DNA of 64,000 nt from Persephonella sp. GTDB taxonomy: Bacteria; Aquificota; Aquificia; Aquificales; Hydrogenothermaceae. Shown here piece after piece: positions 13,309 through 15,337 of the stretch (its first letter is position 1; each line of letters starts with the position of its first letter). The stretch spans positions 124,001 to 188,000 of the forward strand of contig NZ_JALVTW010000033.1 of NCBI RefSeq assembly GCF_027023985.1. Reading direction: 5' to 3'. Both the position numbers and the translations under genes were made by a program. The notes under the pieces are model-generated. The model ran no database searches. It saw only the letters and a program-made list of their open reading frames with translations, and was not told the DNA's origin.

Positions 13309-13983
13309 ATGATAATCACAATTGATGGTCCTGCAGGTTCAGGGAAATCAACAATTGCTAAGATGCTGGCAAAAGAGCTTGGATTTACCTATATAGATAC
13401 AGGGGCTATGTATAGGGCAGTTGCCCTTATGGTAAAAAGAGAAGGAATAGATCCTGATAATGCCAATGCTGTTGTTGAGCTTATGAAAAAAATTCAGATA
13501 GATCTTAAGCCTGCAGAAAATGGGGTGCAGGTTTTCCTTAATGGTGAAGATGTATCAAGAGAAATTAGAACAGAAGAGATAGGGAAAATAGCCTCAAAAA
13601 TAGCAAGACACTCAGAAGTCAGAAAAATACTGGTTCAGATGCAAAGAGAGTTAGGGCTAAGAGCAAAAAATGTAGTGATAGAAGGTAGAGATACAGGAAC
13701 GGTCATATTTCCTGATGCAGATATCAAGTTCTTTTTTACAGCCTCACCTGAAGTTAGAGCAGAAAGAAGATACAAGGAACTAAAGGAAAAAGGATTAAAT
13801 ATAAGCTATGAGGAAATCTTAAAAGAAATAAAAGAAAGAGACCATTTAGATGAAACCAGAAAAGATAGTCCCCTCAGACCTGCTGAAGATGCAATTATAA
13901 TTGATACCACTGATAAATCTTTGTCTGATGTTTTTCAAAATGTTTTGAAAATTATTAAAGATAGATTAAAAAATTCAGGTTAA
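13309..13983 (+). CDS. cmk: Cytidylate kinase
   Basis: A 224-residue kinase phosphorylating CMP/dCMP with ATP. It has P-loop GPAGSGKST (about 6-14), the family's YIDTGAMYRAVAL substrate motif and EGRDTGTVIFPDAD in the nucleotide-binding core, at the normal bacterial length. It is the last gene of the argH-MNT-HEPN-HAD-cmk operon and is followed by the CRISPR leader. Confidence 0.96.
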   Translation: MIITIDGPAGSGKSTIAKMLAKELGFTYIDTGAMYRAVALMVKREGIDPDNANAVVELMKKIQIDLKPAENGVQVFLNGEDVSREIRTEEIGKIASKIARHSEVRKILVQMQRELGLRAKNVVIEGRDTGTVIFPDADIKFFFTASPEVRAERRYKELKEKGLNISYEEILKEIKERDHLDETRKDSPLRPAEDAIIIDTTDKSLSDVFQNVLKIIKDRLKNSG

Positions 13984-14227
13984 AATTTGAGTCTGTCAAT
14001 CGCAGATTTTCGACCTTTAATTGAGACAAAATCTCACGAGAAATTTGGCTAAAATTTAAATCTCGGCTTTGTGTATCAATAATTTGTCGATCTCCAGGGA
14101 TTTTTGCGGGATTAGAGGTCGACTGAAAATTAACTCAATTTGACAAGGACTATAATTTTTCGTATATTTAATTTCAACCAGATATATCAATGGCTATTTG
14201 ACAATAGAATATGAAATCAATTTCAGG
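13984..14227 (+). promoter_or_regulatory. CRISPR leader region
   Basis: AT-rich, non-coding, directly upstream of the first repeat. It contains two inverted repeats: TGAGA/TCTCA (14022-14026 and 14032-14036), and a 9-bp stem GTCGATCTC/GAGGTCGAC (14086-14094 and 14115-14123, with one G-T pair). A consensus-like promoter pointing into the array follows. No ORF was seen in it. The orientation is supported by the repeats ending in GAAAC and by the decayed last repeat at the far end. Confidence 0.75.
14140..14168 (+). promoter_or_regulatory. Promoter of the CRISPR array
   Basis: TTGACA at 14140-14145, 17 bases, then TATATT at 14163-14168. This is close to the sigma-70 consensus with ideal spacing. 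Transcription would start near 14175, about 50 bases before the first repeat. Confidence 0.7.
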
Positions 14228-14520
14228 GTTTTTAGAGTGCCTATGAGGAATTGAAACCTCCTTCAGCCCAAATACTGTCAATTCCGTTCGTGTGTTTTTA
14301 GCGTGCCTATGAGGAATTGAAACTAGGGATTTTTCTTTTAATAGCTATTTGTTTTGCAAGGTTTTTAGCGTGCCTATGAGGAATTGAAACTCCTCATCGG
14401 TTATCTGCATCTTCCCTTTTTTGCCTACGTTTTTAGCGTGCCTATGAGGAATTGAAACACTCCCTTTTAATATATCGGTAATCTGTGAACTACGCAGTTT
14501 TTAGCGTGCCTATGAGGAAT
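14228..14520 (+). CRISPR. CRISPR array, 5 repeats and 4 spacers, no cas genes in the window
   Basis: Repeats of 30 bases begin GTTTTTAGCGTGCC and end TGAGGAATTGAAAC. They lie at 14228-14257, 14294-14323, 14361-14390, 14429-14458 and 14497-14520 (the last is intact for 24 bases, then decays). Repeat 1 differs by one base (AGAGTGC instead of AGCGTGC). Spacers are 36, 37, 38 and 38 bases: 14258-14293, 14324-14360, 14391-14428 and 14459-14496. The GAAAC 3' end fits type I-B or III repeats of thermophiles. Transcription is to the right, away from the leader. No adaptation, Cas6 or interference gene is present in the window. Confidence 0.96.
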
Positions 14521-14632
14521 TTTCAACTTAAAGGTTTATCAGCCTAAAACTTTTTAAATCCCTATATTCTGTATAATCAAAACAGGTTCTATTATAATAG
14601 TCATTCATAAAATCATAGTTTAAGGAGTTTAT

Positions 14633-15337
14633 TTGAAAAGCCTTATAAAGTTTTCATTTTCCAGATTTTCTGAGATTTACGATAAGGAGGCTGTTCTGCA
14701 AAAGGAAGCAGCCAAAATTTTGATAGACTTTGCACAAATAGAAGACGGAAAAGGTTTAGACCTTGGATGCGGCACAGGATTTTTATACAGATTTTCAAAC
14801 TGGCAGGATTTGACGGGCATAGATATAGCCCTTGATATGCTAAAGTTTTATAAAAAATTCAATAATAGCTGTCTTCAGGCAGACATGGAATATCTCCCTT
14901 TCAAAAAAAACACCTTTGATTTCGTTGTTTCTAACTTCTCAATCCACTGGGCAGACCTGAAAAAAACCATAAAGGAAGTCCAGAGAGTCTTAAAACCAAA
15001 AGGAGATTTTATTTTTAATATTCCAGTGCAGGGAAGCCTTGAAGCAGTAGAACAAATGCTGGGGAATACCCAGTTTGATTTTTTATGTGTTCCTGAAATT
15101 CTAAAAACCCTAAAAGAAAATAATTTTGGAATAGAGAATTTCTTCATAAAAAATTTAGAAATGGAATTTCAGGACGGATACTATCTGCTTATGCATCTAC
15201 ACAAAACAGGGGTTGCCATTAACACAAAAAGCCAATCTTTAGGGGAGAAAAGAAAAATAGTTCAAAAATTCAAATCTTATCAAAAACCTGTAAAACTCAA
15301 CTACAAACTACTCTTTGTAAAGGCATACACTACTTAA
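14633..15337 (+). CDS. BioC-like SAM-dependent methyltransferase
   Basis: A 234-residue class I methyltransferase starting at TTG, with AAGGAG upstream. SFSRFSEIYDKEAVLQKEAA matches the N-terminus of malonyl-ACP O-methyltransferase BioC (biotin synthesis). LDLGCGTGFLY is the SAM-binding motif I, with acidic GID in motif II and ADMEYLPFKKNTFD after it. BioC is the best guess, but no other bio gene is adjacent, and the family is easily confused with other small-molecule methyltransferases. Two TATAAT boxes (14572 and 14593) lie upstream. The 3' end overlaps the convergent hypothetical gene by 8 bases. Confidence 0.75.
   Translation: MKSLIKFSFSRFSEIYDKEAVLQKEAAKILIDFAQIEDGKGLDLGCGTGFLYRFSNWQDLTGIDIALDMLKFYKKFNNSCLQADMEYLPFKKNTFDFVVSNFSIHWADLKKTIKEVQRVLKPKGDFIFNIPVQGSLEAVEQMLGNTQFDFLCVPEILKTLKENNFGIENFFIKNLEMEFQDGYYLLMHLHKTGVAINTKSQSLGEKRKIVQKFKSYQKPVKLNYKLLFVKAYTT

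What the first reader, a model, noticed from the sequence alone, without database searches (positions are those of the whole stretch)
13984..14520. Cas-less CRISPR array with a structured leader and near-consensus promoter
Four spacers only, no cas gene in 64 kb, yet the promoter (TTGACA-N17-TATATT) is close to ideal and pointed into the array. A hairpin (GTCGATCTC/GAGGTCGAC, 14086-14123) lies upstream. The array is probably served in trans by a remote cas locus; the leader stem may be an adaptation or integration signal.
Basis: partly seen in the sequence, partly recalled or inferred. Interest (0 to 1): 0.5.

Follow-up and report, generated by a model that had tools for sequence, protein, structure and literature searches.

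The report
Orphan CRISPR array, widely shared leader
This is a small CRISPR memory bank, probably still in use, that sits far from its partner proteins; a 38-letter signal in front of it turns up before CRISPR arrays in several distant groups of bacteria and may tell the cell where to write new memories.

Summary
Window 14228-14521 is a CRISPR array (four 30-nt repeats, a 25-nt end repeat, four spacers) behind a 244-bp leader, with no cas gene seen in the window. The same leader and repeat occur at four other places in the genome, one inside a type I-B cas locus (cas3-[array]-cas4-cas1-cas2), so service in trans is well supported. It is not a relic: a sister species has arrays at all five sites, flanks mostly 87-91% identical, but shares 0 of 25 spacers. 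In 80 of 85 testable sites a CRISPR repeat lies within 260 nt, mostly 102-108 nt away, sometimes before unrelated repeats; 10 of 12 sites outside Aquificota are inverted. It lies upstream of the promoter, so a DNA dyad is likelier than an RNA hairpin. Best reading: a docking site for spacer integration; promoter control is the main rival; neither was tested. It is not universal: ten G037 leaders with the same repeat type lack it. Two leader-motif papers could not be read, so novelty is uncertain.

The parts
13984..14227 (+). leader, ~244 bp, sharply bounded, present in five copies in the genome
   Evidence: 89-92% identical to four other leaders with unrelated flanks
   Evidence: pattern and profile searches; geometry of 92 sites
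14140..14168 (+). promoter TTGACA-N17-TATATT reading into the array
   Evidence: same place in most Aquificota leaders held, -35 box 16 nt after the dyad
14198..14213 (+). leader-proximal element TTGACAATAGAATATG
   Evidence: variants of TTGRCAAYNGAATAWG seen by eye in Aquificota leaders incl. most of G037, not in G047; not tested statistically
14228..14257 (+). repeat 1
14258..14293 (+). spacer 1
14294..14323 (+). repeat 2
14324..14360 (+). spacer 2
14361..14390 (+). repeat 3
14391..14428 (+). spacer 3
14429..14458 (+). repeat 4
14459..14496 (+). spacer 4
14497..14521 (+). terminal repeat, first 25 nt only
   Evidence: same broken end at the orthologous site of G019

Best explanation
[quoted passage not shown] Shown by sequence: five leader-array units share one leader and one repeat family, and all five sites carry other spacers than the same sites in a sister species. 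Inferred: the 38-bp dyad at 14086-14123 is the leader-distal recognition site at which Cas1-Cas2 (perhaps with Cas4), or a dimeric host partner of it, docks as double-stranded DNA, so that the leader is bent or bridged and new spacers go in at the leader-repeat junction ~104 bp away. It would thus mark every array of the cell, near or far from the cas genes, as a legitimate target. The promoter between dyad and array makes the pre-crRNA, which the Cas6 encoded elsewhere would cut for the I-B effector complex.
For: Trans service: one Cas1 found in the genome, in cas3-[array with the same leader and repeat]-cas4-cas1-cas2; sister species G019 has the whole I-B operon, with cas8b, cas7b, cas5b, cas3, the array, cas4, cas1 and cas2 in that order; cas8b-cas7b and cas6 are in the window's genome too. 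Activity: five of five sites orthologous in G019, flanks 82-93%, mostly 87-91% identical, 0 of 25 spacers shared with 48 (longest shared stretch 13 nt). Dyad as a repeat-anchored signal: 80 of 85 testable sites have a CRISPR repeat within 260 nt, gap 102-108 in 60 of 70 direct sites; in 7 of 14 leaders compared the stretch between dyad and repeat is no more like the window's than shuffled sequence (0.60-0.68 against mean 0.62, max 0.69) yet 104-108 nt long; the -35 box lies 16 nt from the dyad in most Aquificota but 32 in G047 and 49-59 in Geobacillus and one Caloramator site; the same dyad precedes unrelated repeats. Symmetry: pair 4:35 occurs as G-C, A-T, T-A and C-G; 54 of 75 distinct sequences complementary against 42.7 permuted, p 0.0002, not corrected for relatedness. 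Co-occurrence with one Cas1 clade: dyad in 15 of 17 genomes with it, in 4 of 14 with other Cas1 only, Fisher p 0.001.
Against: No binding or acquisition data. G037 has 11 arrays with this repeat type; the 10 leaders read lack the dyad, as does the one G035 array. Two other Aquificota MAGs, one named Persephonella, had no match. G001 and G014 have the dyad with only the other Cas1 clade. Gaps of 78-83 and 124-157 occur, and helical phasing is not significant (Rayleigh p 0.13). RNA-style covariation within the family does not beat shuffles (37 of 500). Of the 28 distinct sequences that depart from G-C at pair 4:35 only 7 are complementary. In most Aquificota the dyad also keeps a fixed distance to the promoter, which fits a regulator. 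No protospacer was found for any of the four spacers.
Confidence: 0.6

Rival explanations
1. The dyad is an operator: a dimeric transcription regulator binds ~16 bp upstream of the -35 box and switches pre-crRNA transcription; spacing to the repeat is only a by-product.
For: In most Aquificota and in Deferribacter the -35 box starts 16-19 nt after the dyad, a usual place for an activator (recalled); Csa3a in Sulfolobus binds a leader-distal motif and activates arrays (PMC9456107, passages).
Against: The spacing to the promoter is 32 nt in G047 and 49-59 in Geobacillus and one Caloramator site while the dyad stays by the array; orientation is inverted in 10 of 80 sites.
Confidence: 0.25
2. Both at once, as for Csa3a in S. 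islandicus I-A: one factor binds the dyad, activates the array and hands Cas1 to the leader-repeat junction.
For: Very similar geometry: Csa3a distal motif -143 to -94 and Cas1 proximal motif -25 to +7 (PMC9456107, passages); here the dyad at -142 to -105 and the proximal element at -30 to -15.
Against: No such factor was looked for here; the sequences are not shown to be related.
Confidence: 0.12
3. The array is a decaying relic with only four spacers.
For: Short array, end repeat broken, no cas genes near by, first repeat differs by one base from the next three.
Against: All its spacers differ from those of the orthologous array of G019, which has 13; leader and promoter look intact; matching Cas1, Cas6 and Cas8b exist in the genome.
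Confidence: 0.03

Closest known systems
Type I-B CRISPR-Cas, orphan (distant) array
   Same: 30-nt repeats ending in ATTGAAAC, I-B cas operon with cas4-cas1-cas2, several arrays per genome served by one cas locus
   Different: nothing essential; the arrays share one long, sharply bounded leader
Sulfolobus islandicus I-A leader with Csa3a distal motif and Cas1 proximal motif (PMC9456107, passages)
   Same: two leader elements at almost the same distances from the first repeat; two loci with identical leaders
   Different: bacterial, mostly I-B, other sequences, no Csa3a shown; the distal element is a 38-bp dyad that can be inverted
IHF plus upstream motif of I-E and I-F leaders (recalled; Santiago-Frangos 2021 not held)
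   Same: a leader-distal motif at a set distance from the repeat
   Different: longer distance as far as recalled; IHF was not tested here; found before unrelated repeats and in several phyla
Catalogue of diverse CRISPR leader motifs (Buyukyoruk 2025, seen only as a reference in other papers)
   Same: may already list this motif
   Different: could not be checked
Dispersed long-leader/short-repeat units of Methanocaldococcus jannaschii (recalled)
   Same: many arrays scattered in one genome behind one long conserved leader
   Different: archaeal; sequences were not compared here

Membership tests
CRISPR array | regularly spaced near-identical repeats with unique spacers | tested here: met
CRISPR array | leader with promoter reading into the array | tested here: met
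   sequence and conservation only; transcription not tested
[quoted passage not shown]
   cas8b and most of cas7b at the end of C37, C-terminal half of cas3 at the start of C30; cas5b and the full order were only seen in G019
[quoted passage not shown]
Array acquiring spacers in trans | spacer turnover at the site since divergence | tested here: met
   0 of 25 spacers shared with 48 of G019 at five orthologous sites
Leader-distal adaptation motif (as in I-A, I-E, I-F) | conserved sequence at a set distance from the first repeat | tested here: met
   102-108 nt in 60 of 80 sites; other distances in 20
Leader-distal adaptation motif (as in I-A, I-E, I-F) | helical phasing with the repeat | tested here: inconclusive
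   Rayleigh p 0.13 over 12 lineage values chosen by hand
Leader-distal adaptation motif (as in I-A, I-E, I-F) | mutation lowers spacer acquisition; bound by Cas1-Cas2 or partner | not testable with these tools
   needs a bench assay
RNA hairpin in the leader transcript | stem covariation and location inside the transcript | tested here: not met
   upstream of the predicted promoter; covariation score reached by 37 of 500 shuffles

The most novel reading that the evidence does not exclude
A so far unrecognised, portable CRISPR docking element: a symmetric 38-bp DNA site that is recognised by a conserved adaptation factor in at least five bacterial phyla, works in either orientation and in front of unrelated repeats, and licenses scattered chromosomal and plasmid-borne arrays for spacer integration by a distant Cas1-Cas2.
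Probability: 0.3. Interest if true: 0.75.

Novelty: new member of a known kind. Interest (0 to 1): 0.48.

Why it matters
How Cas1-Cas2 finds the right array outside the IHF-dependent I-E and I-F systems is largely open (so PMC9456107, passages). A defined 38-bp element with a set distance to the junction, present on plasmids of strains such as Geobacillus, Aneurinibacillus and Deferribacter, gives a direct handle: bind, mutate, flip, count new spacers. It could also help to find and orient arrays that lie away from cas genes.

Tried and rejected
RNA hairpin: rejected for want of covariation within the family and because it lies upstream of the promoter. Intrinsic terminator of the upstream gene: no T-run follows the stem (read from the sequence). 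Mobile leader-array unit: the sharp borders and the end repeat cut after GGAATT at three of five sites suggested an insertion unit, but all five sites are shared with G019; I made no flank search for empty sites in other genomes and saw no target duplication by eye, so dispersal is left open. Helical phasing: not significant. Spacer targets: phages and plasmids gave only partial or weak matches, several of them to CRISPR repeats; 20-22-nt stretches of the four spacers gave 0 exact matches in viral contigs. Dyad in viral contigs: 0 for either half pattern; phages: none. E. coli genomes as outgroup control: none. The scan of named genomes with the gene before the array gave one near relative (Persephonella sp. 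M17, 76% identity); the 169 bases held from the end of that gene on show no array.

Caveats on counts: the 92 sites came from loci fetched because they matched the leader, the half pattern or the profile, and the score threshold of 20 is mine, so their number is not a census and many are close relatives. Twelve lack a repeat within 260 nt: 7 have at most 124 nt held on the array side, 5 are misses (two in G033 and one in G038 with other DNA behind the dyad; two in G047). The repeats of L268 and L271 rest on one repeat-like copy each, and the repeat list was partly read from the same loci. The G020 match looks like a chance hit, as does the Pseudomonas row. The fifth match (G150, L270) was far from the consensus and not followed; 45 of 50 genomes there had no match. 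For the Cas1 table, 10 of 41 genomes without Cas1 were dropped (one, G029, has the dyad), 50 Cas1 stretches were classified, and a few weaker hits (such as G004:C167, G010:C17 and G012:C2) were not. One search ran with stricter filters that lose weak matches. Output was cut.

Full report
What is there. The window lies in a 1.90-Mb, 38-contig genome of a Persephonella-like member of the Aquificota (inferred: the best named relative of the gene before the array, by recall a cytidylate kinase, is from Persephonella sp. M17, 76% identity). Between that gene (13309-13983) and a methyltransferase gene (14633-15337) lie a 244-bp leader and an array of four 30-nt repeats, four spacers of 36-38 nt and a 25-nt end repeat. 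Rfam CRISPR-DR2 matches, in the opposite orientation.

Cas genes in trans. No cas gene is seen in the window: tblastn with nine proteins of the cas loci gave nothing better than E 0.1. The genome has five arrays with this repeat, each behind the same leader, 89-92% identical to the window's, with unrelated flanks. One of them, at the start of contig C30, lies between the end of cas3 and cas4-cas1-cas2, and that cas1 is the only one found in the genome. Cas8b and most of cas7b end contig C37; cas6 is on C7, with no other cas model among the ten neighbouring proteins scanned. In the sister species G019 the operon is whole: cas8b-cas7b-x-cas5b-x-cas3-[array]-cas4-x-x-cas1-cas2, subtype I-B by PADLOC models.

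Alive, not a relic. All five array sites are present in G019 with flanks 82-93%, mostly 87-91% identical. None of 25 spacers of the window's genome matches any of 48 of G019; the longest shared stretch is 13 nt. The window's array has 4 spacers, its G019 counterpart 13. The sites are thus old and the contents new. The window's leader is nearer to three other leaders of its own genome (92%) than to its own counterpart in G019 (88%), which suggests exchange between leaders within a genome.

The hairpin is the best-conserved part of the leader. A BLAST search with the leader found it in 18 of 41 genomes of the family; in two of them (G033, G038) little more than positions 102-148 still aligns. 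The left half as a pattern gave 50 places in 19 of 41 genomes, none for the reversed control; one of them (G020) looks like chance. A sequence-only profile of the 38 bp found it in 27 of 136 Aquificota genomes at E at or below 1e-6, in two families (50 of 136 at E 0.05, many of these weak). Among 50 genomes reached through named loci (two of them Aquificota, both without a match) 5 had a match at E 0.01 or better, and four of these lie beside a CRISPR repeat: Caloramator (two sites), a Eubacteriales bacterium, an Atribacteria bacterium and Paenibacillus apiarius; in the Eubacteriales and Paenibacillus loci only one repeat-like copy is seen. BLAST against plasmids added Deferribacter desulfuricans (I-B), Aureibacter tunicatorum (I-D), four Geobacillus, [Bacillus] caldolyticus and Aneurinibacillus, and a weak Pseudomonas match that looks like chance. 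All six Bacillales plasmid loci have CRISPR repeats beside the dyad; no gene named cas is listed in the 3.7-5 kb fetched around each, but the gene tables are incomplete and the rest of these plasmids was not checked.

Geometry. Over the loci held, 92 distinct sites score 20 or more; 80 have a CRISPR repeat within 260 nt on one side, 7 are too near a contig end and 5 are misses. Of 70 sites in direct orientation 60 have a gap of 102-108 nt between dyad and first repeat and 10 a gap of 78-83 (G047 and Aureibacter). Ten sites are inverted, all in Bacillota and the Atribacteria bacterium, with gaps of 100-101, 124-128, 148 and 157; several have longer arms (TTTGTCGTCGAYC...GTCGACGACAAA in Caloramator), and one Caloramator copy is a strong inverted repeat (DNA z -6.9), while the window copy (z -1.1) and the Deferribacter copy (z -0.4) are not. 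In 7 of 14 leaders compared, among them those of other Aquificota genera and Deferribacter, the stretch between dyad and repeat is no more like the window's than shuffled sequence is, yet it is 104-108 nt long. The same dyad stands before unrelated repeats in G033, G047 and G066. The -35 box lies 16 nt after the dyad in most Aquificota leaders, but 32 nt in G047 and 49-59 nt in Geobacillus and one Caloramator site. Helical phasing over twelve lineage values is not significant (p 0.13).

Symmetry. Within the first family the stem shows no covariation beyond shuffles (37 of 500). Over 75 distinct sequences from all groups, pair 4:35 occurs as G-C, A-T, T-A and C-G; 54 are complementary against 42.7 by permutation, p 0.0002, not corrected for relatedness; of the 28 that depart from G-C, 7 are complementary. 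This fits a two-fold symmetric protein site, but the support rests mainly on one pair. The element lies upstream of the predicted promoter, so the array transcript should not contain it.

Limits. G037, in the same family, has 11 arrays of this repeat type; the 10 leaders read lack the dyad, as does the one G035 array; most of them keep a proximal element like TTGGCAATTGA. Cas1 in the family falls into two main clades and a more distant group: the dyad is found in 15 of 17 genomes with the clade of the window's genome and in 4 of 14 with other Cas1 only (Fisher p 0.001; 11 of 12 against 2 of 9 in cleaner genomes, p 0.002). G011 and G026 (clade present, no dyad) and G001, G004, G008 and G014 (dyad, no such Cas1 found) are exceptions; shared descent may explain part of this.

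How it likely works. The closest worked-out case I read is Sulfolobus islandicus I-A, where Csa3a binds a leader-distal motif at -143 to -94, Cas1 a proximal one at -25 to +7, and mutating the distal motif lowers acquisition (PMC9456107, passages). Here the dyad lies at -142 to -105 and a proximal element at -30 to -15. I infer that the dyad is the distal recognition site for the adaptation machinery or a partner of it. An operator is the main rival, and one factor may do both.

Novelty. Distant arrays served in trans are well known; Aquificales are described with one to thirteen CRISPR clusters, only some with cas genes (PMC4227106, passages), and a recent survey covers distant arrays (PMC12814883, passages). 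Ten full-text searches brought up no description of this dyad, but I saw only listings and passages (further passages), and the papers most likely to hold it (Buyukyoruk 2025; Santiago-Frangos 2021) are not held. It may well be catalogued there. I therefore file it as a new member of a known kind, leader-distal CRISPR motifs.

Noticed in passing
L164 (G033:C1:964000-971000) from 3578 on; also G033:C1:897105, G036:C61, G038:C11: DNA inserted between the dyad and the array; in L164 it is a ~1.1-kb insertion-sequence-like element with, by eye, a transposase-like gene, and the array resumes behind it. The other three show similar end sequences.
   Followed up: partly
L030 1290-1335 (G000:C30): A degenerate lone repeat lies just upstream of the leader inside the cas locus, also at the same site of G019 (L155 6553), as if an older array had stood there.
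   Followed up: no
L166 (G018:C1:101000-108000); L160 (G033): Array sites at possible rearrangement points: in G018 a neighbour of the C30 site and genes of the C8 site flank one array; in G033 an array lies by the same gene as the C7 array but apparently in the other orientation.
   Followed up: partly
G047 (same order): Thirteen strong dyad matches, with two unrelated repeat families behind the same leader type and a gap ~21 nt shorter than in other Aquificota.
   Followed up: partly
L155 2418-2711 and 8249-8842 (G019 cas locus): A small nucleotidyltransferase gene between cas7b and cas5b, and a weak DUF6036-like one between cas4 and cas1, interrupt the I-B operon.
   Followed up: no
L161 / G033:C1:789392-790190: The cas1 beside one G033 array appears in two pieces, as if broken, while a second, different cas1 (754 kb) is intact.
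   Followed up: no
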